A DNA stretch of 55,765 nt, taken from Chromera velia (Eukaryota > Sar > Chromeraceae). The notes beneath the pieces are model-generated. The model saw only the letters and a list, made by a program, of their open reading frames with translations. It was not told the origin of the DNA and did not search any database. Shown here piece after piece: positions 11,518-51,488 of the stretch. Positions within the stretch are counted from its first letter, which is position 1. Every line of letters begins with the position of its first letter. Location of the stretch: assembly GCA_018398765.1 (NCBI GenBank), contig JAHBMJ010000024.1, forward strand, positions 3,710 to 59,474, given 5' to 3'. The translations under genes were made by a program, and so were the position numbers.

Positions 11518-13065
11518 TTACAGCTCGTCGCGAATTGTGCTGGAGTGAAACATGTCGCCGTGGCGGGACGTGTCTTTGGGGAAGAGTGGGTGCTCCACAA
11601 CCGACCGCATCGCATCTTCAATGAACCTCACAGCCGCATCCACATCAACCTTGTAGTCGCGAAACTTTCTACTGCCCCGAGAACTCTCAGCCACTTCCAC
11701 TTGCGGCTCAAAGGCTTCCACGTCCTCGCTTTTGCCGCTGTAGTATTCGAGACCGGAGAGGCGCGCCAGGTCGCTGTAACACAGGTCCTCACAGTCGAAG
11801 ACCTCAACAACGCTGCCCCAACGCGGCAGAAACAACATGTGGGTCAAACCCGCTCCATGCATCCCCACCAGCACGTCTGCACTCATCACGCTCTCGGCTT
11901 GATTCACGAAGGGGACCCGTGCACTCACATCAAAATCTGCGATATCAATTTGCACGCGTGACGCTGGGTATTTGTTTCTGACAGCCTGCACGACGTCGCC
12001 CTCATTCAACAGCTTCCGCGTCCCACTGGTGGTGCCTGTGCCCCCACTGCGGGACAGAACAAGAACCTTGATGGGGACATCACTGGGTGGTGACCGAGCT
12101 TGCAATGCAGGTGCGAACTTCCAAAGTACGGGGTTGCCTCTGGTGATAAATTCAAGGAAGCTACGGAAGAAACCGCTGTGACGACAAGTGATGTCGTACT
12201 TGGCTTTTTCGGTCCCAGAGACCCCCACCGGTGCAAGACGTCCCGGCACAGCCATGCTGAAGAAGAAGTTGGGCACACTCCCGCGGGGGTTCATGCTCAA
12301 CGCCATTTCATCGTAACACACGCGCTTTCCCTTCAACTCGCCCACCGACATGACAGGCGCGTTGGGTGAGAAGCTCTTGAAGAGGTCCAGATAAGAGGAG
12401 CGAAAGTTTCTGGCCAAGTCGCTCCACATACGGATCTCCAAGTCGACAAAGCTGTGCTGCACTCCAAAGGTGAAGTCTTCACGCTCCACTGCGTCGATAT
12501 GCACCCAGTCTAGGAGGTGCAGAGTCAGATACAAGTTTGCAAAGTCGCACATGGCGTGGTAGAAGTTCGCGTGCGAGTCTGGTTTCAGGAAGATGGTCTT
12601 TGCTGTCACATGAAAGTCGCACTGTTCTTCCATAGGCACCCCGTCCCTCATCGGGGTCACCCAGCTCTGCTCATCTCCCCACCGCCTCCGAGTTCCTGAA
12701 GTGATCTTCTCGTTCGGTACCGTCAACACGACCCGCTTCCCATGGCAGGCTACAAAGTCCTCTCCACTGCACGCAAATGTGCTTTCCGCGTCCTGAAACA
12801 CCCAGTGCAATGAGTCGCGGTACGTGCGCACCACGCCGAAGTCGGCCCCAGACCAAAATGCGTCTTCCTTCTGACGCGTGGGCTCCAAGCGGGTGGGGTT
12901 CTCCACGAGTGAACAACTTTCAAACGCTCGGTTCTCCTGGTCAAAGTAAGGGTACCATTTGTATCCAAAGGAGTCCATTTTCGCAGTTATAGTGGTGATG
13001 ACACTCGGTGTACAGAGAAGTGCGAGAGCATGCGTCGAGCGAGGCATGAATGCCAAATCAGACAA
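11518..13065 (-). CDS. EOGT-like EGF-domain-specific O-GlcNAc transferase (GT61), ER-retained
   Basis: A single-exon gene of 515 codons on the minus strand. EOGT transfers GlcNAc from UDP-GlcNAc to Ser/Thr between Cys5 and Cys6 of EGF domains in the ER lumen. Diagnostic elements are NFYHAMCDFANLY (167-179, the FYH..CDF.NLY block), VLVLSRS (about 334-340), GMHGAGLTHMLFLPRW (401-416) and VFDCEDLCYSDLARLSGLEY (422-441). The protein ends in RDEL (512-515), a KDEL-type retrieval signal as in animal EOGT. The first Met opens MSDLAF; the second, at 13047, gives a cleaner signal peptide (MPRSTHALALLC...), so 13047 may be the true start. The gene is complete and undisturbed. Its upstream neighbour is the divergent EGF-repeat gene starting at 13945. 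Confidence 0.9.
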   Translation of the reverse strand: MSDLAFMPRSTHALALLCTPSVITTITAKMDSFGYKWYPYFDQENRAFESCSLVENPTRLEPTRQKEDAFWSGADFGVVRTYRDSLHWVFQDAESTFACSGEDFVACHGKRVVLTVPNEKITSGTRRRWGDEQSWVTPMRDGVPMEEQCDFHVTAKTIFLKPDSHANFYHAMCDFANLYLTLHLLDWVHIDAVEREDFTFGVQHSFVDLEIRMWSDLARNFRSSYLDLFKSFSPNAPVMSVGELKGKRVCYDEMALSMNPRGSVPNFFFSMAVPGRLAPVGVSGTEKAKYDITCRHSGFFRSFLEFITRGNPVLWKFAPALQARSPPSDVPIKVLVLSRSGGTGTTSGTRKLLNEGDVVQAVRNKYPASRVQIDIADFDVSARVPFVNQAESVMSADVLVGMHGAGLTHMLFLPRWGSVVEVFDCEDLCYSDLARLSGLEYYSGKSEDVEAFEPQVEVAESSRGSRKFRDYKVDVDAAVRFIEDAMRSVVEHPLFPKDTSRHGDMFHSSTIRDEL

Positions 13066-13944
13066 TTGACGGAATCCAATCGCAAAGGTGTCGGGAACAC
13101 ATGAAGTCAGGAGGTCTACAAAGACAAGCAGGCAGCAAGATCAGCGAGCCCAGCGTTTCCGCAAACTCAATTTGATGTGTGGAAAGACATTGTCAGATGG
13201 AGCAAAAATCGTACACTTAGTGAGTCTTCAAGACAGAATCCATACAGATGGGACTCAGACACCGCTTTCATGCAGTCAGTTAGCAGGGACGTCAGTCCGG
13301 CGTCCGCTGAGTCAAGAACAATGATTGAGGGTCTCAGTCAAGAAAAGGAATTCTTTGCATGGGCCCCGCGATTCTCATATGGCTCTCATTCTCTCGCGCT
13401 CTCAGTTTGTCCCATCAGAGACTGACGCGGACTTACTTCAAAATTATTAATAAAATTATTTTCAAAAATAATACCGACTCATATAATTGACAATTCTTTA
13501 AATTTAACCTGCATTTCCATTGAGGGACAAACTCGGCATCAATGAGAATATTCTTCACATAGGATATCATAGGATATCAAAGGGCCCCGGCATGGCCCCA
13601 ATTGGGCAATTGCGCGCGTAGACGGCCGGTTCAACGATTGCACGCGGTCATTGAACATGTACAGTGACTGCCACATTCTCCTGCATGACACGGGGTCACG
13701 GTCTGTACACCTAGGTATTGCCAAGGTCAATACACAATCTGAAGCATCCAGCCGCCTCCATTAAGAAGAAGGAGTGAAGTCAAACGCGTCTTCTTAAGCT
13801 GTTCCTCGAACTCGATTCTGGTCCACTGTTGTCCACGCAGCGGGGTGTTGTGCGAACACAATTTAGAGACTGCGCAAGCAGGCCATACAGGTCCTCACAC
13901 CGGCTCCGATATCAAGAAAGCTGACGAAGAGTGTTTCAGAGCCT
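13066..13944. promoter_or_regulatory. divergent intergenic region between EOGT and the EGF-repeat gene
   Basis: About 0.88 kb separates the two divergent start codons, so both promoters must lie here. I can see no defined motif. It contains an AT-rich segment at about 13437-13510 and a short repeat ATAGGATATCATAGGATATC at about 13559. Shared control of enzyme and substrate would be natural here but is not shown. Confidence 0.4.
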
Positions 13945-14323
13945 ATGAAAATCATGTTTTCGAGCACTGCACAGTTTCTTGCCGTTGTGCTCCTCTTTGC
14001 GTCAACGTCTCCTTCACACGGGCAAGGTCAGTCAATCGAGCAGGCCCCTGGGAACTTGACAATGCAATTGCAGGGTCCGACGTCTTGGCCATTATTTTCA
14101 TTCATGTTTGCTGAATGGAGAAAGCAGAAGAGTGCGAGCCGCTCCAATTTGTACAAGGTCAACGCGTGGGCTGTGCATGTCCGCTATGTAGTCCTACGAT
14201 GCCCTACGATGCTTGCGTGTGTCCTGTGCTCGTTTTCGTTCCACGTTATTGCTCCGTCCGTCACATCGAGAGTGCATGAGTGAGTGTTTGGGTGAGTGGA
14301 TGGGCCATGCAGTCCCTCCTTCT

Positions 14324-14354
<31 letters not shown>

Positions 14355-17300
14355 CCTGTGCCTGTGCCGGCCTCTTTAATTCTTCCATGCTGACCGTCAT
14401 GCAGTCGTTTCTCGTGCATGATGTAGTGGTGACATCTGTCATTGCAGAATGCACCCCCAGCCCGTGCGACCCCAATGCGGAGTGCACAGAATTGAATCCC
14501 GGTTTTATGTGCATGTGCAATGAGGGCTTCACTGGAGCCGGGGAAACATGCTTCGGTGAGTGTTCCCCCCCCCCTCCCCATTCTTGCTCCCTGTCTGCCT
14601 GTGACACTGCTGTTCTGGTCTTTGGGTCGATTGCTGGGCGGGAGGGTCTCTTCTGCTGTTCCGTCTCAAGGCGCTTCCATAGGTATTTTCAGCTGCTTGT
14701 TTCTTCGTTTGGAGCTGTAAAGCAAAGCATCAATGCCGGTTTGGCTTCTTGCAGACATTCTCGAGTGTCTAGCCACTCCGTGCGACCCCAATGCTGAGTG
14801 CACAGAACTCCCCGGATCCTTTGAGTGCATGTGCAATGAGGGCTTCGCTGGAGACGGGCAAATCTGCGACGGTGAGTGTTCCCCCCCCCCTCCCCATTCT
14901 TTGTCCCTGTCTGCCTGTGACACTGCTGTTCTGGTCTTTGGGTCGATTGCTGGGCGGGAGGGTCTCTTCTGCTGTTCCGTCTCAAGGCGCTTCCATAGGT
15001 GTTTTCAGCTGGTTGTTTCCTCGTTTGGAGCTGTAAAGCAAAGCGTCAATGTCGGTTTCCCTTTTTGCAGACATCGACGAGTGTGAAGACAGTCCGTGCG
15101 ACTCCAACGCTCAGTGCACAAACACCCCCGGATCCTTTGAGTGCATGTGCCTTGAGGGGTTTACTGGAGACGGCGTGACATGCACTGGTCAGTGTCTTTC
15201 TCGCCTTTCTTGATCGCCTACTGCTCTTTCCATGAGTGGGGGGATGGGTGGGAAGTTGCTTTGTCTGTTCTGTCTGAGGGTCTTCGTGGTTCGCTCTTCG
15301 ACGAGTACTCGATCGAGTTTGACTGTTGTAATGTCCCCTCCTGCAGACATCAACGAGTGCAACGCTGAGCCTGGACCATGCGCTGCCAACGCTCAGTGCA
15401 TAAACACTCCCGGATCCTTCACGTGCATGTGCAACGAGGGATTTACCGGAAACCCTTTGGACGTGTGCATGGGTGAGTGCCTGCCTGTCTTCAGCCGAGT
15501 GCTCTCCATTTGCCTGCCTGTCTGCCTGTCTGCCTGTCTGCCTGTCTGCCTGTCTGCCTGTCTGCCTGTCTGCCTGTCTGCCTGTCTGCCTGTCTGTCTG
15601 TCTGTCTGTCTGCCTGCCTGCCTACCTGTCTGCCTGACTGCCTGCCTGCCTACCTGTCTGCCTGCCTGCCTGCCTGCCTGCCCGTCTGCTTGTTGCCTGC
15701 CTTGCCAGCTTCCCCGGCTGTATTCGTTAATGAATGAACTGTCGGTTGGTTATTCACTCGGGCGGCTGGTGAGTATGTGGGTGGGTCGGTTGGGCTGTTT
15801 GAATACATTTGAATCGATGAGGGTGACGTTCCCTCCTGCAGATATAGACGAGTGCACTTATTATGTGTTTATTTATTTAATTATTTATTCATTTACTTAT
15901 TCTGTATTCTGTTTTTATGTTCGAATCGATGAGGGTGACGTTCCCTCCCGCAGAAATAGACGAGTGCACTTATTATGTGTTTATTTATTGATTTATTCTG
16001 TATTTTGTTTTCATGTTCGCATCGATGAGGGTGACGTTCCCTCCTGCAGATATAGACGAGTGCAGCGACATCCCCAATCTGTGCGATGACAATGCTTCGT
16101 GCACAAACACCGAGGGAGACTTCATCTGCGACTGCGATGAGGGGTTCGTTGGAGACGGCTTCAATTGCGGTGGGTTGGCATATGCATTTATTTTCGTATA
16201 TCCATTTATTCTGTGTGAACAAGAATTCTGTATGAATATAAATGCATGCGACGAGGGATTCGTTGGAGACGGCTTCACGTGCGGTGGGTTGGCGTGGGTG
16301 GGTGGGAGGGTGGACGGATCGGTGCATGGGTAGGTTCGCTCTGTCCCTGACTGCCTGTTTTTACCATCTGTCAGGGTCTTTCAATCTCATCGCTGCGCTG
16401 CAGAGCAATTGTGAAGCAAGCTTGCTTGGTTGGGCCCGTTGCCTGCCCTCTTGCAGGCCCGGACTTGTGCTCTCCCGATCCATGTACTGCCGTGATTGCA
16501 TTTACTTTCATACAGAATTCATCCACAAATAGTTGTGTGAAAGTAAATGCAGACCCGGACTTGTGCTCTCCCGATCCATGTGCTGACGATGCGGAGTGCA
16601 TGAACACTGAGGGAACCTTCGTCTGCGTGTGCAATGAGGGATTCACTGGAGATGGAGTGACCTCGTGCATCGGTGAGTGTTTCTCCCACCTTCCTTGTTC
16701 CCTTCCTACCGGCCTGCCTGCCAGTCTGCTCTACGGGTTGCTGCGTTACTGCGTGGGTGGGTGGGCTCTATTCTTTCTCTCTATTGACTTTTTCTTTTAG
16801 TCTGTGGAAGCTGCAGAGCGAAGCGACTATGCGGATACCTGTTTCTGCAGACATCAACGAGTGCGGAGACAGTCCGTGCGATCCCAACGCTGAGTGCACA
16901 AACACCCCCGGATCTTTCACGTGCATGTGCAATGAGGGATTTACTGGAGACGGCGTGACATGCACTGGTCAGTGTCTTTCTTAACTTACTTGATCGCCTA
17001 CTACTCTTTCCGTGGGTGGATGAGTGGGTGGGTAGGTGGGTGGGTGGGTGGATGGGTTGGCTATCGGTTGGTCTTTTCTTTCTCAGCCTCTTTGTGCGGC
17101 TCCTTTTTTCCAGTCGTCTCTCAACTTGCAGCATGTCGCTTCTTAAGCTGCCCGTCTGCCTGTCTGCCTGCCTGCCTGCTTGCTTGCTTGCCTGCCTGCC
17201 TGCCTGCCTGCCTGTCTGCCTGCCTGCCTGCTTGCCTGCCTGCCTGCCTGCCTGCTTGCCTGCCTGCCTGCCTTGCTGAGTCTCTTTTTGACTGCGCTGT

Positions 17301-19523: not shown

Positions 19524-20428
19524 GCTGGAACGACTCGGATGTAAAGAGGCCAAAATATTGTTTCCAGTCCCTTCCGCTTCTTTTCATCAGAGCGGCTTCT
19601 ATGAATGATAAAAGTGGTATCGTATTCTTCCTGTCTTTTACAAGAGCGTTAATAGCAAAAATGTCTGACTCATGATTGTGGCTGCAAATGTTTTGACTGC
19701 CAGGATTTGATAGACTTTGCAAGGAGTCGGCAGACTCGCAACAATCTCTTGATGCATTCTATAAAAGCTTAACACTGTGTGAACATCCTACTAAAAGCTC
19801 TTGATTCTACTTTTTTGTGTTTTCAATGCCAGTTTCAATATAAACAAGCACAAACTGTTGTTAAAAGGGAAATATGAAACGCAGAAACTTCGATTATCGT
19901 TCGGTGTTTTATTTAGTATCTTTTATTTAGCATTTTTTAAGTGTTATTTACTTTTAATATGATCATCATTATGACTGTCAACTGGTCTTTGCCATTATTA
20001 TTGAAGCACAAGGCCAATCGTCATCATTCTCATCATCATAATATGCCATTGCCGTCGGCCCATACTAAGCGTCTAGCGTTTGGCAGGTCACAATATGCAA
20101 GACATTTGAACGCAGATTGTTATCATCTAGATGAAAATCCGATCAAAATTGTTTCCTATCTTTACCTATCCTATTTTGTTTTATTATTTTTATGTCTTTT
20201 ATGGAGTGTTACACCTGGTGACCTAGTGTTACACTCTCGAGGTCCTGTGTAGGATAGTGTAGGATGAATGCGCACTTGAGTCAGCACTTGAATGAAAAGT
20301 GAGAACAGTCATGTACGAATCAGTACGAATGAAGGTGTGCAGGCGCATCAAAGCCCGCCTCCAGCGTGTGTATCTGGGATTATCCAGGGCGGTCCGCATT
20401 ACCTAGGAAAAGCGCGGGCCCGCGGGGG
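19524..20428. other. intergenic, AT-rich
   Basis: I see no gene. The tail of the EGF-gene transcript presumably ends here. A short direct repeat (acctaGTGTTACAC) lies near 20210-20235. Confidence 0.5.
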
Positions 20429-20765
20429 NNNNNNNNNNNNNNNNNNNNNNNNNNNNNNNNNNNNNNNNNNNNNNNNNNNNNNNNNNNNNNNNNNNNNNNN
20501 NNNNNNNNNNNNNNNNNNNNNNNNNNNNNNNNNNNNNNNNNNNNNNNNNNNNNNNNNNNNNNNNNNNNNNNNNNNNNNNNNNNNNNNNNNNNNNNNNNNN
20601 NNNNNNNNNNNNNNNNNNNNNNNNNNNNNNNNNNNNNNNNNNNNNNNNNNNNNNNNNNNNNNNNNNNNNNNNNNNNNNNNNNNNNNNNNNNNNNNNNNNN
20701 NNNNNNNNNNNNNNNNNNNNNNNNNNNNNNNNNNNNNNNNNNNNNNNNNNNNNNNNNNNNNNNNN
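20429..20765. other. assembly gap (N run)
   Basis: 337 undetermined bases, flanked on both sides by G runs (GCGGGGG and a run of 15 G). It probably hides the 5' part of the LINE described next. Confidence 1.
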
Positions 20766-22977
20766 GGGGGGGGGGGGGGGATAAACTCAAGGGCCCGAAG
20801 CTCCATGATGATAGTCACTGGCCCTGTGTTCCCCCCTCCTTCTTCCCCCGCTTTTTCTCTGCACATGATAGAGGAAACCCTGAAAGGAATAAACGTGAAT
20901 AAGGCTGCTGGTCTTGATGGAATCGCCCCTGAACATCTCGCTCTTTGCTTCAAACACTCAACCCTTTCTCGCTTTCTCCTCTTTGTCTTCTTTAATCTGT
21001 TTCATTCTTTTTCATTTTGGCCATGTAGATGGAATGTCCTGAGGATTGCTCCCGTACCGAAGGGCCCCCCTTCTCTTGATTGTAATGAATGGAGGCCCAT
21101 TCACATTGTTAGTCTCCTGGGTAAGGTTTTTGCTCTTCTTATGGACGTCCGCCTTCGTAAAGAGACAAAGATCGGTGAGAGACAGCTAGGCTTCAGGAGG
21201 GGCGTGGGGACACGGGAAGCGTTCGCGTCCCTCTCTTCTCTCATTCTTCAGTCTAAGCACAAAAGGAAGCCCCTCATCGCAGCGTTTGTAGACTTCTCCA
21301 AAGCTTTTGATACAGTGCTCAGAGAGAAAATGTTACAAAGACTTAAGGACGAAGGGGTCAGTCAGGCGGACATCCACATGATTCATTCCATGTACTGTAA
21401 TGTGACAGCAAGGGTTGATGGGGGAGACAAGTGCTTGTCGGAGGGAGCGGGTGTGAAGCAGGGTGACCCTCTTTCTCCTCTTCTTTTTCTTCTGTTTATA
21501 AACAATTTGCACAAAGCCCTCAGCTCGGAGAACCAACAGCAGAGCGGTAATGAGGGAAGGAGCGCTTTGAAACCTGTCAAGCTTTCCTCGACCCTAATAG
21601 AGAGTATTGGATACGCTGATGATCTTGTGTTGTTTGCCCACAGCGCTGCAGACCTGCAGGAGAGACTCCAGCGCCTCGAGGTATACTGCAATGAGCACGG
21701 CCTCACGGTGAACTTGAAGAAAACAAAGATCCTCCGTCTATCGTCCCCTGATCCTCTCATTGAGCCCGACTCGGAGAGTCCCCTTTTGTTTTCAATGGAA
21801 GGCCGGTTGAGCATGTTGATAGATACAAATACCTAGGCAACTGGATCTTTGAGGGGGGGGATCTATCTAAAACTGTGAAAGCAAGAATTGAGTCGGCAGA
21901 AAGGGCTCTGGGGGGAGTATTTGGAACTCTCTCTTCAATTGGTTTTGTTTCTTCTTTCTCCCGAATTCAACTGTTCAAAGCTCTATGGGTGCCTGTGGCA
22001 ATGTTCGGTCTTGAAGCCCTAGCTCCCACTCAGGCAGTCAGATATTCAATGCATCTCTCGATGCATTGCAGCTCCGTTTTGTTCGCTGGTCTTTTGGTTT
22101 GTCCCAGAACTCTTTTGTTTCTCCCTCTCTTCACTCTTTTGGTTTGGAACCCTTTGGTTGTCTGCTTGCGAAACAAGTAGCCAGCTTCTTTCAGTCTCTT
22201 AAATCTATAGAACGCGCCTTGCCCACGGCTGTATGGGAGGCCTGCATCGCTGGTTCTTGTGCTCCCTTTGTCTCCTCCACCAAGCGTCTGGCTGTGCCCC
22301 TTGACAGTTCTCTCCTGGCAGACACAGATGAGCCACGCCAAGAAAAGCCAAAAAAGAAAGGAAAATTCAAACGGAAAGAGGCGTGTCGCAAGATTGAGAC
22401 GAATCAATGGCTTGGTGAATGGGCTAGAAGACAGGAAGGCAGCAGGAATAGAGACAGAATCTTCCATCCTCTTAGTGCCCTCACTGATTTCCAAAGAGAG
22501 AACCCTTCCAGACAGAGGCTCTCCATGCTCCTGCTTGCAGAAAGGAAATGGCAGTCATGTCCGTCAGACACAGGAAACGATCTACACATACGCACGTTGT
22601 CCCCTTGTCTTCTTAAATCCTCTGCAAACATCCGCCCTCTCCTGAGAGCGATGACGGGTGGTTTTGTGCAGCGGGGGGAGCTGGAGAAGACCTGCTCGGC
22701 TTGCTCTGGCAGAAAAGTTCGTGATGAGATCCATCTGCTCACGGAATGTGCGGACACAGAGAGGGAGAGACGGAAGCTTGACGAAATCATCAGCAGAATA
22801 AAGGAGCGCGCGCCCATTGAGAAACGGGTAGAAATTGCGCAATGGGTGGCTGTCTCAGCTGGTAGGGGAGTGGGGGAGAGTGAAAAGAAAGTCCGAGAGA
22901 TGATCGCTCTTATATCGTCGTTCCAGCCTCTGGCGGGTATGAGGGCGGTAGAAGAGTGTATAGCCAAATTGGCGTGA
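20766..22977 (+). pseudogene. LINE reverse-transcriptase ORF2 remnant
   Basis: The readable polyprotein fragments are in frame 3 (to 21836), frame 2 (about 21790-22180) and frame 1 (about 22050-22977). It has an RT domain with an intact YADD box, a thumb-like helical segment, and a C-terminal zinc-knuckle-like motif. No single frame covers the protein, so it cannot be made as it stands. Confidence 0.8.
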
Positions 22978-26391: not shown

Positions 26392-26782
26392 GCTGCGCAT
26401 GTACCCTCTGTCTGTACGCTCTTTTCTGTGTTGATCAGATTTAGTTCCCATGCTTGCATTGAGTGTTTTCTGTGTGTGTATGAATAGGAGTTTGATTCTG
26501 CTTGGGTTGGTTCCCTGCAGAATCCTCCCGCACACGGGGATTCACTGAACACCACCCCAGACAACGACTCCCTCTCCTCTTTCAAAGGCAAATAGGGAGT
26601 AGCCACATGTTCCTCGATTCCTCGTCCTTTTGTTTCGAATTCTCTTCCTCCTTCTGTTCTTTTTCGCATGCTGCGTCAACACATTCGTTTTGGTCATGCT
26701 TCTCTTCCTCGTTTGAGTGCAAGCTTGAAGGAGCAAAAGGCTCTCTGCTGATGTTTTCGAACTCAGCCAGATTAATTCTGAT

Positions 26783-27799
26783 TTGGGAAAGAAGATTTCT
26801 CTTTTGGGTTTTCGGTATGTGTTCGTGATGAGAGATGCAAAGGCAGGGGTGGTGTTGACACGTGCGATGAAGAAAAGAACGGACACCGGTCCTCTCTCTG
26901 CTGTGTGTGAATGGATTGATAAGTACGGGCTCATGAAACGATTTGTGTCAGACAACGCAGGTGAGTTGTGTGAAGGTAAAGTGAAGGCAATGTTAGAAGG
27001 AAGGGGGGTGCATGTTTGCCCCCGACCTCCTGAGTCATCAATGGGGCCTGCAGAGCGATGGGTAAGAACGGCACGTGCTGGTCTGAGATCGATGATCCAT
27101 ACATGGAAGTTGCCTCTCGAATTCTTTCCGTGTGTGCTACGGGCCGTTGAGTATTCATACAATTGCACCGCGTCTGCTGAGACTGGCCGCTCTCCTTTGC
27201 GTTCTGCTTTGGGTGTCCGGCCTGACACCTCAACCATGCCTGGAGACCCTGTTGTGTTTGTACCTCCCTTTCACAAGAAAGTTCAGAATTCGCTTCGTCC
27301 CCCAGGAAAGGTAGGCATCTTCCTCTCTGTTGTCTCTCCATCCGAGTGGCAGTTAGTGCAATGGGATGCTCTTCGGGGTGATTGGTCAAGGGTCGTGCGC
27401 GTTCATCCGATGAAGCATGGTGTGAAGGCTTGCTCCCCTGGTGTCCTTCTCTCTTCGGGTTTGGTTGATCACATAGGGGAGTGGCTTTTGCCTGAACGCC
27501 GGCCTCGGTCAGAAGTCGGGGGGGGGGATAAGAAGAAAATTGACTGGGTCGGCGGGGGGCATGGGCCAGAAGAGAAAGAAACCGAAAGCAAAAACCTTCT
27601 TTCCTCCTCTTCTTCCTCTTCTTCTGTATCCTCCTCTTCTTCTTCTGCCCCATCTTCTTTCCCTGAAGTCTTGTACGGAGAACCAGTCGAATTGGATGAT
27701 CTGTCAGAAGAGAAGGCAGACCAGTCAGTCTGTGGATTTTGCTTTCATGAAGGCCACAGAGCGTTTCGATGCACTCAGCAAAAGAAAAAAAAAGAATGA
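26783..27799 (+). CDS. copia integrase with C-terminal CCHC zinc knuckle
   Basis: The integrase core (rve) reads YVFVMRDAKAGVVLTRAM (first Asp), FVSDNAGE (second Asp) and GPAERWVRTARAGLR (Glu), so the D-D-E triad is present. A Ser-rich linker follows and then CGFCFHEGHRAFRC, a C-x2-C-x4-H-x4-C knuckle. In most copia elements this knuckle lies in Gag, upstream. The frame ends just after an A9 run at about 27785-27794. The next segment (to about 28010) continues in frame 3. Confidence 0.8.
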   Translation: MGKKISLLGFRYVFVMRDAKAGVVLTRAMKKRTDTGPLSAVCEWIDKYGLMKRFVSDNAGELCEGKVKAMLEGRGVHVCPRPPESSMGPAERWVRTARAGLRSMIHTWKLPLEFFPCVLRAVEYSYNCTASAETGRSPLRSALGVRPDTSTMPGDPVVFVPPFHKKVQNSLRPPGKVGIFLSVVSPSEWQLVQWDALRGDWSRVVRVHPMKHGVKACSPGVLLSSGLVDHIGEWLLPERRPRSEVGGGDKKKIDWVGGGHGPEEKETESKNLLSSSSSSSSVSSSSSSAPSSFPEVLYGEPVELDDLSEEKADQSVCGFCFHEGHRAFRCTQQKKKKE

Positions 27800-28024
27800 G
27801 GATCCTGAGCTTTCTTTTTCCATTTCCGACACAGAGAAACTGTCAGGCAAGAATCAGATCCCTGTTTCTCCATCGGATCCTGCAGTCCGGGGGGGGAAGT
27901 TTGATCAAGCAATGGAAAGAGAGCTGAACAAACTTGAAAAGTTCTCGGTCCTCAAAGAGACAGACGGAGAGAAAGACGACGTGCCCGCTTCCTTGTCTCA
28001 TGTGCTGTTTGTTCCATCTTTCTT

Positions 28025-29494
28025 TTGTGTCGTTGGGTGTTCACTTGGAAGTTGAAGGACGGGGAGAGAATCCCAAAAGCTCGTCTTGTCTGCATGGGGC
28101 ATTCAGGAAGGGATCATCGCAATTGTGACACATATTCAGGCACACCTGATTCTTCAATCTTTCGTTTGTTTTTCATCTTTTGTCTGGTAAAGAATTGGGC
28201 GATGGCAATCACGGATGTCACGGGTGCCTTTCTCCAGGCGCCAATTGTCGGTTCTGCTGCCTCTTCTGTGCGTGTGAAGCTGCCTTCATTGTTTCCAAAG
28301 GGGAAGCGGTGGTCTTTCGTTGCAGGGGGGGTGTATGGCTTGAGAAAGGCATTGTGCGGACTGAAAGATGCTCCGCGCATCTTCACGCAATGGCTGAAGA
28401 AAGTGCTCTTCCGTCTCTTTTCCTTTTCTGAGTGTGTTGAGTCCATTTTGATCCAAACTCGTTCTCCCGTTCCTTCTCCCGTCCGTTCGTCAGATGAAAA
28501 ATTATGGGCTGACGTTGAGCAGGCAGACATCACCGCAGCGTGTCAGATGCATGTTGATGATTTGTTTTTACTTGCACCTGATCCGTTGGATTTGTTGAAG
28601 CAGTTTGGGAAGAACGTGGAGTGCGAAGATCCAGAGCTGATTGGAGCAAAGAGGAAGAAAGTGGTTGGTCTTGAGATGGCACATGACAGACAGAAGGGAG
28701 AAATCACTCAAGGACAAATGAGTTACGTCAGCACAGAGTCTCTTCACGAGCCGAAGAGAAGCCGTAAGCTCGAGAAGGCAGACTTCGAGAAGCCAGAAGA
28801 GAAAGAAGTAGACATGAGACTGGAAAAAATTTTCCGCTCATTGTTAGGGATGCTGGGATGGTTGTGCAAAACCCGTTTTGATCTTTCTTTTGCTTTTTCA
28901 CAGTTGTCTCGCTGGTCTTCCTGTCCCTCTCCACGTGTTCTTCGCACCCTTTCAACCGTTTTGTTTTTGGCTGTTGAGAAGGCATGCGAGCTTGTATTTC
29001 TTGCTGTTTGTCTGCCTGAACTGCGTTTGTTCGTCGATGCTGCTTATTGTGATCGACTGTGCGAAGCGAGAAGTGGGTATGTTTTTCAGCTTGCCAATGC
29101 AGACTGGCCGTTGACGTGTCGAGCAAATTTGATAGACTGGGCAAGCCACAGAGAGAAGAGACTCATGCGTTCCACCGCTGGAGCAGAACTGCTTGCTCTC
29201 TGTCAGGGTGTGTTGAGAATGCCTTTGCTTTTAAGGATCACTCGTATGCTTTTTGGAAAGGTGAAGGTGCATGTTCTGACAGACAGTGCAGCGCTGGTTG
29301 AGCAGCTCAAAAATAGAGTCTGCAAGAAAGAGCCGACCTTGCAGGGTCGTTTGCTTTTTGTGTTGCAAGAGTTGGAGGCAGTGGGGGCTTCCTTTGAGCA
29401 CGTTGATGGAGCCGTGAGTCAGATGGCGGATTGCCTTACAAAATGGAAGGATCCTGATGTGGCGTGGCCGAAACCGATGGATGCCGCTTATTAA
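28025..29494 (+). CDS. copia reverse transcriptase-RNase H (RVT_2)
   Basis: 489 codons. RVT_2 hallmarks are FTWKLKDGERIPKARLV, ITDVTGAFLQAP and LRKALCGLKDAPRIFTQWL, with the catalytic box as MHVDDLFLLAP, where the usual YVDD Tyr is His. The RNase H part has LFVDAAYCD, STAGAELLALCQ and VLTDSAALVEQL, ending near SQMADCLTKW. The domain is open to the stop at 29492. It is linked to the integrase segment by two opposite frame changes (about 27790 and 28015). Confidence 0.85.
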   Translation: MCRWVFTWKLKDGERIPKARLVCMGHSGRDHRNCDTYSGTPDSSIFRLFFIFCLVKNWAMAITDVTGAFLQAPIVGSAASSVRVKLPSLFPKGKRWSFVAGGVYGLRKALCGLKDAPRIFTQWLKKVLFRLFSFSECVESILIQTRSPVPSPVRSSDEKLWADVEQADITAACQMHVDDLFLLAPDPLDLLKQFGKNVECEDPELIGAKRKKVVGLEMAHDRQKGEITQGQMSYVSTESLHEPKRSRKLEKADFEKPEEKEVDMRLEKIFRSLLGMLGWLCKTRFDLSFAFSQLSRWSSCPSPRVLRTLSTVLFLAVEKACELVFLAVCLPELRLFVDAAYCDRLCEARSGYVFQLANADWPLTCRANLIDWASHREKRLMRSTAGAELLALCQGVLRMPLLLRITRMLFGKVKVHVLTDSAALVEQLKNRVCKKEPTLQGRLLFVLQELEAVGASFEHVDGAVSQMADCLTKWKDPDVAWPKPMDAAY

Positions 29495-43653: not shown

Positions 43654-45157
43654 ACTTTTTTTTGTATTAGATTTTTTTTTTTAAGGCAAGACCACTTGAC
43701 TCTGACACTAGTCTAGGCAGACGAAGATGATGTGTGATGATGATAATGACCAAATATTCTTGCTTGGTACAAAACTTTAGACAAAACCTCTAGCAAAACC
43801 TAGAGTAAAACTAAGGGGAAAATTATATAGTGACGATGGAATGAAACACAAAATAAAATTGTTTAGACCATCTATACTTCACTTTTTCGTGACTGAAACA
43901 ATTTGACGTTGAATTCGTGCATGAACTGGCGCACTGGTGCATGCAGCATTCCGATTGATTTTCAAGTTTGAAGTTTAAATGCAGACGGCATTCCAACCAT
44001 GGACCTAGCACACAGATCAGACGAGACAAGACCGTTTGCGTCTCTCTCTCTCTCGCTTTCCCTATCCAACAGATGCAGTCTCTTTCCTAGTCCCTCACCC
44101 CCCAGCAGGAAAACAAGAACCTCCTTTTATGATGCGATCAGGCGGGGAGGACCGAGGAACAAGGAGTGCAGAAAGAAATGGAGCTTGAAATTGAGCAAGT
44201 CGACAACACAGAAAAAGCAACCAAAAACGAAAGAAACTTCGAGGCTTCAAGGCTCCTGTACGTATATTTCGGCATATGGAGGTCTGTAGAGTCAGTGTTG
44301 TTGGTGGATGGGGAGGATGGATTGTTTGACGAGATCAATCACTCGATCGATCGATCAATTCAGTGGCCTCTCCTGAATTTATTTTCTCCTGGTGGCGTCG
44401 CTTCAAAATTCCCTTGCGGGCTGTGAACCCGACATTGACAGCTGCTGGCGTTTCTCTCTTCTGTGCACGCATGAATGAATGTCAACGTCCCGACGAATGA
44501 AGCTATTCATATACAAACAAACACACGCTCGCGCTCGCTTAAAATCCATGTTCCACCACACAAAACAAAGCCAAGCAGGCAAGAGGTAAGAAAGAAGTGC
44601 AGAGTCAATCAACAACGCGAGGTCACATGCATTCATACAATGCCCACCTACTGAAACAGACAGAGGCAAACAAACACACAGACAGAGGCATTTCATTGAC
44701 ATGAAACACTCACTCACTCACTCACTCACTCGTCAACTTATTTACAATCATGAACATTGATTCATGAATTCGCTCATTCTTTCTTCATTCTCTGTTTTCG
44801 TGGATTCCTCACGCTTGGACGGTCTCTTTCATCTCTCCCGCCCCTTCTTTGTTTTGCTCGTTCACGATCTTTTGGAGATTTCTGCACACACACACAGAGG
44901 GGGGGCACACCTCAACTTTCACAAAAAAAAACAAAAGGCCAGAAAACCACGCATCCTTCCCTCTATATTGACTCAAGCGAACGCTTCCCCAACTTTCCTT
45001 CCCTCTCCCACCCCCGTGTCCGTGCCTCCCAGCTTTCCCCCATGACGTCCTCAGAGATCAATCGACGCACGCAAGGACGCATCAAAAATTTCGATGCGTC
45101 CTTGCGTGCGTCGATTGACGTCCTCAAAGATCCCTTCAACGTCCATTCATCCACCCC
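43654..45157. other. non-coding stretch before the IspH 3' end
   Basis: Contains T-rich tracts (about 43655-43685), a CT run near 44041, and (CTCA)n at about 44708-44731. The short open frames are not convincing. Confidence 0.45.
45043..45132. repeat. 56-bp fold-back insert between 17-bp direct repeats
   Basis: 45060-45115 is almost a perfect hairpin: AATCGACGCACGCAAGGACG... pairs with ...CGTCCTTGCGTGCGTCGAT over about 24 bp with a 9-base loop. It is bracketed by TGACGTCCTCAGAGATC (45043-45059) and TGACGTCCTCAAAGATC (45116-45132). It lies just 3' of the IspH stop codon. Confidence 0.9.
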
Positions 45158-48060
45158 CTAGATCACCCATAAGCAAAAAAACAAAGAAACCGACCGCGGG
45201 AGTTTCCAGTTCACATTCTCCTCCACGTCCACCACCTCCTCCACGCTGCTCACGCCGTACGCCATGAGCTTGTCAATCACACCCTGCACGGACAAACATC
45301 AAAAGCATGTGGACATACGCTCTTGAGGCTTCCGCGTGCAGAGAAAGTCTCGGCCCACACGAGTGCACACGAATTTGAAGGCAAAGGAAAAAATTGAGAA
45401 AACGTCTGTTCCTTCACTGCTACGCCGGAAAGAGAAAAGAGAGCACGAACGCGACGGAAAGGGAAAAGCAAAACCACAGAGAGGTGTGAAGTGCTGATAC
45501 CGAGGAACTTCCAGCAGAGAAACAGAGATCGAAAGTCAGAAGTCCCACGCACCTGCACAATGTCCTCCGGTGTGCTTGCCCCCGCCGTCAAGGAGACCCT
45601 CTTGACGCCCTCCAGCCACTCCGGCTTCACGTCATCTGCGCAGTTGACGAGGTGCGCGTTGACCCCTCTGTTCGTTGCGACCTCCCTCAGCCGGTTGCTG
45701 TTGGAAGAAGTGTGGTGACCGACAACGATCGTCAGATCGGTCTGCAACAGTTAGAGAGAGAGGAGAGGAGGCGGGGGGGACAGAGGACACAGGGGGCAAA
45801 TGGATTTCGGGACACACCGACAAGCAGTGTGAGGAAGAGAGGAAAGTCCTACAAAAATAGCAAAACACCTGCACTCACTCAAACTTTTCCGCAAAATGAG
45901 GGGTGCAAGATGAGAGAATAAGCATGTAGGTGAAAAATGCAGACAGAAGGAGATGGGCAGGGAGGGAAGAAACCTTTGAGCCAACAGCTCACATCTTCAA
46001 CAAAAGCCTTGAGGGCGTTCTGTCTGTTCGTCGTTGCGTAACAGATGGAACCGGAGGGGATGGTCTTCGACTGCGGGAATTTCTTCAGGAGGGCACCTGC
46101 AAGGAGAGACACACATGTGGAGTTGTCTTGTCGTTCGATCTTCTCTGGTTCGGCTGCTCTGCCTGTCTCAACCACACACATATGCGTGCACGCGAGCGCG
46201 AATGGCTGGAGGGAGAAAATTCTTGAAGAGGTTTGAGAGAGGGAAAGCGTCTGAATGAAGTTTTTCATCCATTTTCGCATTCTCCTTTTTTGTCTTTGCG
46301 ACGCAGCCCTGGACCAAGAGACTGAGGGGAAAGCGAAGAGACGTAGAAAATGAAGGACGGAACGAAAGAAGGAAAGAAGGAAGAGGGGAAGGAAACCGAA
46401 GGAAGGAAGGAAGGAAGCCAAGAAGTACAAACTGTCTCCCTCACTCACCCAGAATTTCTGCGCAGTCATCCATAGAGAGCGTCGTTTGGGTGGCATAGAA
46501 GATCCTGAGAACAGCAGACGAGAGGAGAGAAAAGGAATACAGACGTTTGAGCGCTGAGAACGAATGGATTGTCAGCATCTCAAAAACGCGTCGCAGCGAC
46601 ATCAGAACCGACTCACCGGTGTCAAAAGGTTAAAATTCGCTCCTCAAGGGGCTCTGGCTGGAAGAGAACCACTCCGATTTGAAACAACGAAAAAAAATGA
46701 AAAGTGAAAAGTTGCCGCAAGGAAAAGGAAAGTGCACACGATACACATACAGGCCTATCAAAACCTGCTCAGACGTTCACAGGAAAGCACAACCACTGCC
46801 TGACTTGTCATCGGGACCGAAGGGGAGCTTGTCGACGTCCTCGGGGGTCTCCAGGACGGTCGTCTGCTCGGGGGCCTCCGCAACCACTCCCTGGATCTCA
46901 ACTGCACCCATGCACGCACGCATGTCCACGCACGCAAATGAGACGAACGGACACATGAGTACAGAAACAGAAGAGAAGTCTCACAAACCGCCGTCTCCTC
47001 CAGGGAGTCTTCGACCGCTTTCTGAATCCCGTCTAGACGCTGTTAGTCTCTTCCATTCACTGAGTCAATCAATCAGAGTGCGAAGAGGACAAGTCAGGGA
47101 AGAAAGGGGTGCAATTCCAAACTTACCGAGGGTCTACTCATTCAACCCTCCATTCTTTGTGGTTACAGTGCCGGTCTCACGAGTACACCAACCTCTGCTT
47201 CCTCTACACAGTCAGCCAGAAGGACACACGAAATGCGCATTTCCTTTTTTCATTGCTTCTCCTCTCATGACTGACAGGCAGACAGAGACAGACAGACTCC
47301 ATGGATTTTCTTCACAGAAAGACGGACAGACAGAAACAGAAGCCACCTTCCTCTCCCAAGTTCCCATCTCTTCTTTCTTTGCCTTCCTCTCCCAAGTTCC
47401 CATCTCTTCTTTCTTTGCCCCTACAATCCACTTGTCCATCTCTTGTCCTGTCGAGCTGTGCGTGCACTTACCGTGCTTCTTGTGTCCGATGAGGACGATG
47501 TTCTCTCCCTTGGCTGCCGCCTTCTTCACGTACACGTGGACCTTGGTGACCAGAGGGCAGGTGGCGTCGACCTCGTACAGCTGTCTGTCTGCAGCCTGCT
47601 GACGGACCTCGGGGGGAATGCCGTGGGCAGAGTAGATCACCTTGGCGCCCTCAGGAACATCAGCAAGGTCCTCAATGAAGATCGCCCCCTTCTCCTGCAC
47701 AAACAGGGAGGATGGGAAGAAACGCATTTTCCCCTTCTCTCTTCACAGACATACATTTTCTGTGTGTATCTTCACATCGTTTCTGCAGAAAAAAACAAAA
47801 CGCGAGGGCGCACAAATTATCCATTTATGTCCACAACATGTACGTCCACTCGAGTCCCGGCAAAACCTCTCAACACCCACACCCTCCCTGACTGACCCTG
47901 AGACGGTCACACACGATTTGGTTGTGCACGATCTCGTGCTTCACATAGACGGGCGCTCCCCAGATCTTGATGGCCGCCTCAACGGTGTCGATCGCCCTGG
48001 TGACACCCTCACAGAACCCCCTCGGGGCTGCGAGCATCAGCTTGATCCCTCCCTCAGCAT
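45158..48060 (-). CDS. 4-hydroxy-3-methylbut-2-enyl diphosphate reductase (IspH), exons continuing from FBPase
   Basis: Last enzyme of the MEP isoprenoid pathway: it reduces HMBPP to IPP and DMAPP with a 4Fe-4S cluster, in the plastid. Exons (minus): 48060-47897, 47694-47472, 46901-46805, 46504-46449, 46096-45993, 45741-45553, 45283-45158, all phase-consistent. The three cluster cysteines are visible: [20 protein letters not shown] and [10 protein letters not shown]. Active-site features are [47 protein letters not shown] and [11 protein letters not shown]. The tail ENVNWKLPR is typical. The first exon starts in phase 1 without ATG or leader, and upstream in line is the linker exon 48509-48398. 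Note the unusual tail [11 protein letters not shown] before TAG. Confidence 0.93.
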
Positions 48061-48098
48061 CTGCACGGACGCATAAACAAATAGACACACGGACACAC

Positions 48099-48130
48099 AC
48101 GGACACACACACACACACACACACACACAA
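48099..48130. repeat. (CA)n in the intron between linker and IspH exons
   Basis: A CA run at about 48099-48128 (GT on the coding strand), near the acceptor at 48061. A similar CA run at about 49112-49165 sits just before FBPase exon 7, and GA at about 48698-48720. Confidence 0.85.
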
Positions 48131-48397
48131 AGATGACCTTTTCTCTCCCACCTGGAATGAAAAACAAGAAACCAATGAACCCTGAGGAGCTCCCGATTCG
48201 ACTTTCCCATCTGCCGCGACAGCCACCAGAAGCAGCAGAAGTGGAGGAAAGAGCCAGACAGCAAAAAGAGGGGGGGGGGAAGAAAGAAAGACAGAGCGAG
48301 CATCAGACAGAGCCAGAGACAGAACGGAAAAGGGAGGCAAGGAAGAAAAACACAAGCAAGCCGCAGGTCACACAGAGGACCACAAAGAGAGACTGAC

Positions 48398-48509
48398 TGC
48401 TTGACTTTGTCGCCACATTCAATTGCAGTTCCTCCTCGGCTTCTGCGCTCTTCACCACGTCCCCTCCCACAGTCACCTTCTTGTTCATGCCGTCTCTCTC
48501 AGGCCCGAC
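48398..48509 (-). CDS. linker exon joining FBPase and IspH
   Basis: Acceptor CGCATGCAG at 48510, donor AGCA|GTCAGT at 48398/48397, 112 nt. It enters in phase 0 (matching the last FBPase exon) and leaves in phase 1 (matching the first IspH exon), encoding 37 residues beginning VGPERDGMNKKVTV and ending NVATKSS. Unspliced, the frame runs on to a stop at 48303 through a hydrophobic stretch, which is the alternative FBPase C-terminus. An ATG overlaps the acceptor, so a separate IspH start (MQVGPERDG...) cannot be excluded, but it would lack any targeting signal. Confidence 0.6.
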
Positions 48510-48824
48510 CTGCATGCGACAGTCGTTGTGCACACACACGAATCATTTTTCTCTGTTGGGTGAGTTTTCGTTTTCGTCCATGCAGTTGCCCCCAGACAGA
48601 GCCTGTCGCGAGAAGGTACGCTCTACAGGAAATGGGAGACTTGTAGGCACACGTGAAGGCGCGAGCGTCCGCATACACACGCAGGAAGAGAGGGACAGAG
48701 AGAGAGAGAGAGAGAGAGAGACCTTAAGAGAGAAAGAGGATTGGCTGCGGGACGGAGGGGAGAGGGAAAGGTGTTCATTCAAAAAAGCGCAAGTCTCTTC
48801 TCTTGCGTGTGAGAATTGACTGAC

Positions 48825-51488
48825 CAGCATATTAAATCTCTTGACCTCCTCCTTGCTTCCCATCGCCACCTGTGTCTTATCGTTCAGTCCTCCGGATACA
48901 GGCAGGTCCAGGAGGGAGAACAGACCGTTCGACGACGCCCCCCCTGCCTTCTCGATCACGTAGGCAAGCGGTGCGGCCTCATAGAGAAGCTTCAATTTGG
49001 AAGGGAACTGGGGCGAAGAGGGGGTCACAAAGACACCACGCCCCTTCACGAGAAGCTGGTTTACGTCAGGAACAAACCCACCCGTGTACCGGAGAGTGTA
49101 TTTGTTCTGCACACACACGTACACACACACGCACACACACACACACACACATTCACGCACACACACACATTCACGCAATGGATAAAAAAGGCGGAACGGG
49201 TGGAGACGGAAAGGTCAAAAGGCGCAAAAACCACGAGGGTGGCAGAAGAAAAAAGAGGAAGACATGAAAACCAAGACACAAAAAGGAAAGTCAAACAACC
49301 CAACGTGACAGAAGCAAAAAAGCAAAATTGTCGTTCTACAGCTAGCAAAAACACCCGAAACAAACACCCCTCCCCCCTGTCTGACCTGCATCCAGAAGTC
49401 AACGAGGGACTTGTATCCCTTGTTATCCTGAGTGGCTCTCAAGTTGCCTGCACAAAGCGAAAACAAAACACGACAACAAGCACGAAGACATTCCAGAAGA
49501 CCGCCACTCAAAAACGACCACCGCGTTCAGGCAGCATGTAGCCCGCGCGCCAAACTATAAACCCAAAGCCATCCAGCTGCCTCGAACTCTCCACTCTTTC
49601 CCACTCTGCACTCGATTCTCTCCAGACTGATTGCTCGCTTGTCCTGTGGCGCCCCCCCCCAAAAAAGACACACTTCGGCTGAGTGCATTGAGAGAAGGGG
49701 GGAATTCATGGGAGAATCAGGAAATGAAAGGGGAAGACTCCTGGGCCCTTTGCTCCTCCCGTCTCTCGCAACTCTGAAAGCTCACACACCGCCTTCTCCC
49801 CCTCACCTGGAGAGAAGAGCTTTCCCTCTTCCAGTGCCGCAATCTCATTGGAGTGAACGAAGTACCCGTGCTGCCCGCTCAGGTCGTCTCTCAGAGTGAA
49901 CTCATGAGCCCCCGGCACGCCGTCAATGGCTAGCGTGACCATCGTGCGGGGGCCGTACACAGCCATCCCCGCAGCGCTCATCTCCCTCCCCGTCACGCCC
50001 CTCAACTGCTGGGAGGGCCAGATGCCGAAGATGGTCCCGACAGCGAAGTCGGCATCGACTGCAACAAAAAAGAAGGTGAGGGAGGAGAAGGGGATAGACA
50101 GAAAGGACAGAGAAACAGCGAGACGGGAGAAGAGAAAGGGTAAAACCAAAACCAAAACTTGAAGAGGGAAACAGAAGAACACAAAGTAAGACGTCCCACC
50201 ATCCTCACACAAAGCCCGTGCACGCACCCACCGATGGAGGACCCATCAAGAGGGTCAAAAGCGACACTGTAATCGTTCCCCCCCATTCTCTTCTCCACCG
50301 GCTCCTCCTCCGAAGAGGCCACAGCAACCACACCTGCACATATGCGCACGAACACCCATGACTTTCGTTCGCACAAATAAAGACACATACGCAACAAAAA
50401 TGTGCGCGTGCATGCGCGCATGAACAGACGTAGACTGTTCGGAAGAGGCCGCTAAATGGACGGATGCATTCGCATTGCTCTGTCACATCATGACGGGCGG
50501 CCTCTCATCCCAGGGTGAGAAAAATGAAAAAAATTGTGCAGCAATCCCGCCTCGGTCAGACCGACAGAAAGGAACGAAGCGTGAGCTTCACAACTGCTCT
50601 CCAGAAGAAAGAGGTCGTAGGATGCTTGACAGGCAGGCCCGACCTTTACTCTTTTTCTTTCCCTGCGTGAGAAGAAAAAGGGAGAGAACCTGCCAGACTC
50701 ACCAGAGGATGCGAGGTTTGCCATCAAGATGTCATTCGCAAGGACGTCGATAGCAAGCTGCACACAGGAGGTCGAGCGCGTGTCAGAAGAAGCGGGGACC
50801 AAGGCATACATAGGTGGAGAAAGGAAAACGAGCAGATCAGAAGTGCGGAGAAGGACACGTGAACTCGTCCACAACAAATGCACAGGAGGGGGGAAGGCCC
50901 ATGGGAACGTGTCCAGCGGAAATATTGAGAAGGGGGCAAGAGACGAGGCAAGCAAGCAGTGGCACAAGGATGGATGGGGAAGGCAATGATGGCTCCCCCG
51001 TCCCCTGCCCCTCTTCAGACCCAGTCCCACTCCTGACCTGATTGTCTCCCAGCTCATTGAAGCACGCTGTCTTGTCACAAGAGGCCGTGCGAACCTGCGG
51101 AGAGGAACAGACAAACAGAACAAACACACGCGTCAGTCTCGTCGTTCCGTCCACTAGATGGCAGAGCTCATCGGTCCACAGCGTCCCAGAACACTGCCCC
51201 TCCCCTTCTTACCTTGTAACTGATAAGTTTGACTGCCTCCAGGATTCCGTTCACGACTTTCCGGAGTTTCGGGTCGACATTATTCGAGTCAAGCCATTCG
51301 TGCACCGTCTCCAGCCTTTGAGTCTGGATGGTCTCAGGCCCATACAGGTCAAGAGAGGACAAGTGAGAGGCTCTCCGAAGTGGTTGTGACCTTTGGAAGG
51401 ACCCTCCTTGAAATCTCAACTGAAAGGCAGAAGCAAGAAGACCCTCGAGAGAGAGGACTACAGTTAGAAAAGAGAAGACTGCCTGCAT
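48825..51488 (-). CDS. plastid fructose-1,6-bisphosphatase
   Basis: Hydrolyses fructose-1,6-bisphosphate to fructose-6-phosphate. Exons (minus): 51488-51213, 51094-51038, 50757-50703, 50333-50232, 50058-49807, 49447-49386, 49106-48825; 362 codons, all phases consistent. The N-terminus MQAVFSFLTVVLSLEGLLASA is a signal peptide cut before FQLRFQGG, then a basic transit-like stretch: a bipartite plastid leader. Catalytic features are ASSEEEP (metal-binding Glu), FDPLDGSSI (Asp156, Asp159), VGTIFGIW, AVYGPRTM, KYTLRYTGGFVPDV and LLYEAAPLAYVIEKAGG (Glu311). Two Cys (CDKTAC) lie near residue 100; the usual chloroplast redox-loop insertion is not obvious. It ends GSKEEVKRFNML at donor GTCAGT with no stop codon, whether spliced to 48509 or read into the intron for 90 more codons. 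Confidence 0.93.

What the first reader, a model, noticed from the sequence alone, without database searches (positions are those of the whole stretch)
45158..51488. FBPase and IspH appear to form one spliced gene: a plastid bifunctional fusion
Seen: seven FBPase exons with a plastid leader end at a good donor with no stop codon. A 112-nt exon (48509-48398) enters in phase 0 and leaves in phase 1, exactly matching the FBPase end and the first IspH exon. The IspH part has no ATG, no leader and no room for another 5' exon. The joined frame is 718 codons without interruption, and the cluster cysteines and FBPase metal ligands are all present. Known: both enzymes work in the plastid, in carbon fixation and in the MEP pathway, which draws on triose phosphate. 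Inferred: one leader carries both, coupling their expression or location. I know of no described FBPase-IspH fusion.
Basis: partly seen in the sequence, partly recalled or inferred. Interest (0 to 1): 0.92.

Follow-up and report, generated by a model that had tools for sequence, protein, structure and literature searches.

The report
Known Chromera SBPase–IspH fusion gene
Two plastid enzymes, one of the Calvin cycle and one of isoprenoid synthesis, are really made as one fused protein in this alga, but this very fusion was published in 2014 and traced across the malaria-parasite relatives in 2019.

Summary
On the minus strand, 16 exons (51488-44809, all 15 introns GT-AG) join into one 730-codon frame. 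The second is IspH/HDR. A public 651-aa protein from a 3529-base contig equals the model through residue 614, so its source crosses both linker junctions without introns.

It is not new. Petersen et al. 2014 (PMC3971594) described the Chromera velia sbp3-hdr gene from full-length cDNA, with the same 7+1+7 introns, ~40-residue hinge and single hdr gene. Janouškovec et al. [quoted passage not shown]

What I add: SBPase active-site residues are intact in the Chromera and Vitrella fusions but largely missing in the other four distinct fusions examined, whose IspH sites are intact. One of these, from Cardiosporidium, is still predicted to fold as SBPase: a retained pseudoenzyme. My searches returned no statement of this in print.

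The parts
51213..51488 (-). exon 1: start codon, signal-peptide-like stretch ending ASA|F (read by eye), transit-like stretch, start of SBPase
   Evidence: model; identical in P0001
51038..51094 (-). exon 2 (SBPase; Cys98/Cys103 pair CX4C)
50703..50757 (-). exon 3 (SBPase)
50232..50333 (-). exon 4 (SBPase; motifs SEE and DPLDGSS)
49807..50058 (-). exon 5 (SBPase)
49386..49447 (-). exon 6 (SBPase)
48825..49106 (-). exon 7 (C-terminal part of SBPase; no stop)
   Evidence: FBPase_C match to residue 361
48398..48509 (-). exon 8: linker (hinge), phase 0 in, phase 1 out
   Evidence: present in P0001
47897..48060 (-). exon 9: start of IspH (Cys416); in-frame ATG at 48037
47472..47694 (-). exon 10 (IspH; Cys500)
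46805..46901 (-). exon 11 (IspH)
46449..46504 (-). exon 12 (IspH)
45993..46096 (-). exon 13 (IspH; Cys598); P0001 reads on into the following intron
45553..45741 (-). exon 14 (IspH)
45195..45283 (-). exon 15 (IspH)
   Evidence: start of the tail shared with relatives; beyond the reach of P0001
44882..45194 (-). intron XV (313 nt) with a 30-nt, 97% inverted repeat (45058-45087 / 45089-45118)
   Evidence: Petersen et al. 2014 could not Sanger-sequence intron XV (~350 bp) because of repeats

Best explanation
This is the nuclear sbp3-hdr (SBPase-IspH) gene of, very probably, the photosynthetic alveolate Chromera velia. One gene and one signal-plus-transit leader give a single 79 kDa precursor bound for the plastid. 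Its N-terminal half is an SBPase with an intact active site and a CX4C cysteine pair like that of plant SBPases; its C-terminal half is a chlamydial-type IspH with its cluster cysteines and substrate-site residues intact; a hinge of about 40 residues joins them. Shown here: gene anatomy, agreement with an intron-free public record up to residue 614, intact residues, IspH found at one locus only. From print: full-length cDNA. Inferred: both halves are active, and the main effect of the fusion is shared targeting and matched amounts rather than channelling, because the SBPase product is not the IspH substrate.
For: Open 730-codon spliced model with 15 GT-AG introns; calculated mass 79.2 kDa. Pfam FBPase 67-223, FBPase_C 240-361, LYTB 408-683. 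Best PDB sequences: P. falciparum LytB 4n7b and moss SBPase 5iz3. P0001 identical through residue 614; its contig is shorter than the genomic span. IspH matched at one locus only in the own assembly (3 of 3 matches in this gene). Vitrella fusion 60% identical over 91%. 10 of 10 SBPase sites, both cysteines of the CX4C pair and 12 of 12 IspH sites intact. Petersen et al. 2014: cDNA KC899090, same intron layout, ~40 aa hinge, single hdr.
Against: No tool named the organism; Chromera is inferred. No enzyme assay or localisation of this protein was seen. The C. velia genome has two other SBPases (SBP1, SBP2) in the photosynthetic clade, so the Calvin role of SBP3 is not certain. P0001's DNA could not be read, only its protein, and it ends before exon 14. 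The protein passes the cut-offs of 2 of 8 NCBIfam IspH models and fails 6, some of them for narrower or fused forms.
Confidence: 0.95

Rival explanations
1. Two neighbouring genes in tandem, with a separate IspH 5' leader exon hidden in 48825-48066.
For: An in-frame ATG at 48037 (Met408), and pyrimidine-rich intron stretches that read as hydrophobic peptides.
Against: P0001 crosses both linker junctions; a published full-length cDNA is said to match the genomic contigs; the same domain order occurs in six other protein records.
Confidence: 0.02
2. One fused precursor is cut in the hinge inside the plastid, so the two enzymes act apart.
For: The hinge is poorly conserved and varies in length among the fusions aligned.
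Against: No cleavage data seen either way; a dead SBPase half kept in other fusions is easier to understand if it stays attached (inference).
Confidence: 0.25
3. Assembly artefact joining two loci.
For: Repeats are said to be common in the C. velia genome.
Against: The frame stays open over every junction; the record P0001 and the published contigs and cDNA agree.
Confidence: 0.01
4. The SBP3 half does not serve the Calvin cycle in the alga but another sugar-phosphate route, or is mainly structural.
For: Two other SBPases of the photosynthetic clade exist in C. velia. The best-scoring named SBPases without IspH in the listing are from Euglena and chlorarachniophytes (that these genera are chlorarachniophytes is recalled).
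Against: All ten catalytic sites and the CX4C pair are intact in both photosynthetic algae, Chromera and Vitrella, and most of the ten are lost in the four other distinct fusions; only one of those four has a known organism (Cardiosporidium, a parasite), three do not.
Confidence: 0.25

Closest known systems
SBP3-HDR fusion of Chromera velia (KC899090; Petersen et al. 2014, PMC3971594)
   Same: Same domain order, bipartite leader, ~40 aa hinge, 15 introns as 7 + 1 (hinge) + 7, single hdr gene, repeat-bearing intron XV
   Different: Intron XV is 313 nt here and was estimated at ~350 bp there; KC899090 itself could not be opened here to compare letters
SBP3-IspH fusions of chrompodellids, Digyalum and apicomplexans (Janouškovec et al. 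2019, PMC6733595)
   Same: Same order; chlamydial-type IspH
   Different: In the four distinct fusions examined besides Chromera and Vitrella, most of the SBPase active site is missing
IspH-RPS1 and IspH-UbiA fusions of bacteria (PMC4746011)
   Same: IspH fused to another protein
   Different: Different partners and lineage; known here from search listings and the start of the abstract only

Membership tests
Sedoheptulose-1,7-bisphosphatase (SBPase) | Closer to solved SBPases than to solved FBPases | tested here: met
   5iz3 324 bits and 7b2o 313 bits vs 122 bits for the best FBPase, 1fta
Sedoheptulose-1,7-bisphosphatase (SBPase) | Metal and substrate sites (equivalents of FBPase E97, E98, D118, D121, N212, R243, Y244, K274, E280, numbering recalled, plus the Gly of DPLDG) | tested here: met
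   10 of 10 present, each identical in 34 of 34 SBPases compared
Sedoheptulose-1,7-bisphosphatase (SBPase) | CX4C cysteine pair (thioredoxin role recalled) | tested here: met
   Cys98, Cys103; 34 of 34 references
Sedoheptulose-1,7-bisphosphatase (SBPase) | Hydrolyses sedoheptulose-1,7-bisphosphate | not testable with these tools
   needs an enzyme assay
   best 199 bits against a cut-off of 521; these models are made for prokaryotes, so a eukaryotic FBPase might fail too, and no such control was run; one search is the better test
IspH/HDR (LytB) | Family profile over cut-off | tested here: met
   PF02401 297 bits vs 24.5; TIGR00216 309.9 vs 187.85 and NF002190 399.1 vs 389, while 6 of 8 NCBIfam IspH models are not reached
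IspH/HDR (LytB) | Three cluster cysteines and the HMBPP-site residues (E. coli numbering recalled) | tested here: met
   12 of 12 sites, each 60 of 60 in the bacterial-type references used
SBP3-HDR fusion family | N-terminal SBPase, hinge, C-terminal IspH in one frame | tested here: met
   intron layout as published
SBP3-HDR fusion family | One mRNA | tested here: met
   P0001, seen as protein only, 12 introns absent from its source, up to residue 614; full-length cDNA in print
SBP3-HDR fusion family | Plastid location of the protein | not testable with these tools
   leader read by eye only; no localisation seen

The most novel reading that the evidence does not exclude
When photosynthesis was lost, the SBPase half of the ancient SBPase-IspH fusion lost its active site, by different residue losses in different lineages, yet stayed in frame, folded and attached to IspH. 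It is a kept pseudoenzyme that now serves IspH (assembly, stability or import), and its removal in Toxoplasma, Plasmodium and piroplasms was a later, second step.
Probability: 0.4. Interest if true: 0.5.

Novelty: already known. Interest (0 to 1): 0.25.

Why it matters
The fusion is a published marker tying the plastids of photosynthetic algae to those of malaria-type parasites. The added point, a dead but still folded Calvin-cycle domain fused to an essential enzyme of a non-photosynthetic plastid, would make 'why keep a broken photosynthesis enzyme' a testable question, for example with the proteins of Cardiosporidium, a parasite of sea squirts.

Tried and rejected
Rejected: separate genes, assembly artefact, FBPase label (see rivals).

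A hidden SBPase relic in front of other IspHs was looked for with Pfam at E up to 0.1: no FBPase family match in Toxoplasma P0025 (long N-terminal extension), Babesia P0036, the unnamed Plasmodium-like P0040, or Selendium P0010. This agrees with the 2019 paper; the other Plasmodium and coccidian records were not scanned.

The first hand-made exon joining had three donors off by one base and gave stops; corrected.

A tree of IspH had 37 rows: 7 fusions, 11 other apicomplexan-type rows and 19 bacterial-type rows; a 20th, P0076, dropped out because it lacks the motif used for trimming. It does not resolve the order inside the fusion clade. The fusion label needs 4 changes on it, well-supported branches force at least 2, and in 0% of 200 bootstrap trees are the fusions one side of a branch. 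That fits one gain and several losses but does not prove it.

A second homolog search, with the alignment of fusions, showed no new fusion among the 120 listed of 7542 hits (6 of the 7 known fusion records listed, P0009 not). Rfam: 0 matches in the window at gathering scores. The Cardiosporidium genome paper PMC7737231 has no mention of IspH, sedoheptulose or fusion in its main text (term search only). Paper searches by the names SBPase-IspH and the like missed both fusion papers because these write SBP3-HDR and SBP3; (pseudoenzyme) returned none.
Full report
What is there. On the minus strand, 16 exons from 51488 to 44809 join into 2193 nt, 730 codons plus TGA, with 15 introns that all begin GT and end AG.

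What the two halves are. Pfam gives FBPase (67-223), FBPase_C (240-361) and LYTB (408-683). Among solved structures the first half is nearest to SBPases (5iz3, 324 bits; 7b2o, 313 bits) and much further from FBPases (best 122 bits). It also stays far below NCBIfam's class 1 FBPase cut-offs, though those models are built for prokaryotes and I ran no eukaryotic FBPase as a control. So it is SBPase. The second half passes PF02401, TIGR00216 and NF002190 (2 of 8 NCBIfam IspH models; 6 are not reached) and is nearest to P. falciparum LytB 4n7b. The named hits next in line in the profile search are Chlamydiae (P0162, P0174, P0189, P0191), which agrees with the Chlamydiae-like origin stated by Janouškovec et al. 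2019.

Is it one transcript. P0001 is a public 651-aa protein from a 3529-base contig. It equals the model through residue 614 and then runs into intron 13, with the letters of the window's own reading of that intron. The genomic span of that frame, 51488-45879, is 5610 bases, so the contig must lack introns; it looks like a partly spliced RNA. I saw the protein only. Petersen et al. 2014 report a full-length cDNA and state that it matches their genomic contigs.

It is already published. Petersen et al. 2014 (PMC3971594; I read passages, and sections 10 and 15 in full) describe the Chromera velia SBP3-HDR fusion: a signal and transit peptide, an N-terminal SBP, a hinge of ~40 residues, a C-terminal HDR, seven introns in SBP, intron VIII in the hinge and seven in HDR, a single hdr gene, three SBP and four FBP cDNAs. 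My model has the same layout. In the own assembly (177.8 Mb) IspH matched at one locus only, and the FBPase family matched on eight contigs, the window's included. They could not sequence intron XV (~350 bp) because of repeats; here that intron (44882-45194, 313 nt) holds a 30-nt, 97% inverted repeat with 1 nt between the arms, which may be why (inference). Janouškovec et al. 2019 (PMC6733595; passages only; [quoted passage not shown] No tool names the window's organism; Chromera velia is inferred from this match.

Relatives. Among the 120 best of 1626 hits, 7 records carry both domains: P0001, Vitrella P0002, P0004 (EukProt, transcript GHVL01033696, organism not named to me), two Cardiosporidium cionae proteins (P0005, and P0006 which is partial), and two unnamed ones (P0008, P0009). 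In an IspH tree of 37 rows, rooted at the midpoint for drawing only, the 7 fusions and the 11 other apicomplexan-type rows used fall on one side of a branch (support 100/98); the Cardiosporidium proteins and P0008 group with coccidian, Plasmodium-type and Babesia rows (98/91). The order inside is otherwise unresolved, and the fusions as such are not one side of a branch in any of 200 bootstrap trees.

What I add. I aligned the SBPase part of the fusions with 34 of the 42 SBPase records without IspH in the listing (left out: five tandem or multi-domain ones, P0003, P0007, P0028, P0099, P0119, and three further ones, P0095, P0097, P0103). These references were listed because they resemble the Chromera protein, which favours it somewhat. 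Of 122 near-invariant columns, Chromera keeps 108, Vitrella 115, P0004 54, P0005 43, P0006 33 (43 columns not covered), P0008 40 (10 gaps) and P0009 40 (19 gaps). At ten active-site positions, each 34 of 34 in the references, Chromera and Vitrella keep all ten; P0004, P0005, P0008 and P0009 keep 2, 2, 1 and 4; P0006 covers five of the ten and keeps one. None of the four keeps either of the two adjacent glutamates. P0004 does keep the CX4C cysteine pair, a point against simple decay of everything. All keep 12 of 12 IspH sites, and P0004 to P0009 keep 119-128 of 144 near-invariant IspH columns, against 130 and 131 in the algae (60 of 110 eligible references used). Between the two Cardiosporidium proteins the SBPase-like part is 156 of 219 identical and the IspH part 297 of 323: the former changes faster but stays in frame and alignable. 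AlphaFold of P0005 gives mean pLDDT 86 but pTM 0.55, so the placement of the two domains is not to be trusted; its model matches moss SBPase 5iz3 with target TM 0.88 at 21% identity. The alignment behind the model held stand-alone SBPases, so this is support, not proof. The main text of the 2019 paper, at its passages on SBP3 and sedoheptulose, says nothing on active-site residues; supplements were not open to me. Paper searches that returned no statement of it: (open-licence papers only; listings read, and passages of three papers).

How it most likely works. In the alga, one leader delivers both enzymes to the plastid in equal number. The SBPase half has the cysteine pair of plant SBPases (thioredoxin role recalled), and IspH needs electrons, from ferredoxin in plastids (recalled). 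Both halves would thus work when the light reactions run, and the Calvin cycle makes the triose phosphate that the MEP pathway uses (recalled). Direct channelling is unlikely because the SBPase product is not the IspH substrate. In Cardiosporidium, and in the three fusions of unknown organism, SBPase activity is predicted to be gone and the domain to remain as part of the IspH protein, either useful or merely not yet removed. I hold a useful role at about 40%.

Verdict.

Noticed in passing
window 45043-45132 (intron XV): 30-nt, 97% inverted repeat with 1 nt between the arms, with a 17-nt direct repeat (94%) at both sides; a possible cause of the published sequencing failure of this intron.
   Followed up: partly
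P0004, P0005, P0006, P0008, P0009 (relatives): Most SBPase active-site residues are missing while the IspH residues are intact: a fused pseudo-SBPase in the fusions outside Chromera and Vitrella.
   Followed up: partly
window 11521-13140, -: Long open frame with a glycosyltransferase family 61 match, E 1.5e-13.
   Followed up: no
window 14192-14797 and 15214-16089, +: EGF-like domains in two open frames, perhaps exons of one EGF-repeat gene.
   Followed up: no
window 27938-29494, +: Copia-type reverse transcriptase (RVT_2) frame, E 1.7e-10; the upstream frame 26729-27799 looks integrase-like by eye but had no Pfam match.
   Followed up: no
window 20292-21836, +: Reverse-transcriptase-like frame, judged by eye, with a stretch of N inside; not analysed.
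   Followed up: no
window 3951-5456, +: Open frame with a tetratricopeptide repeat near its end.
   Followed up: no
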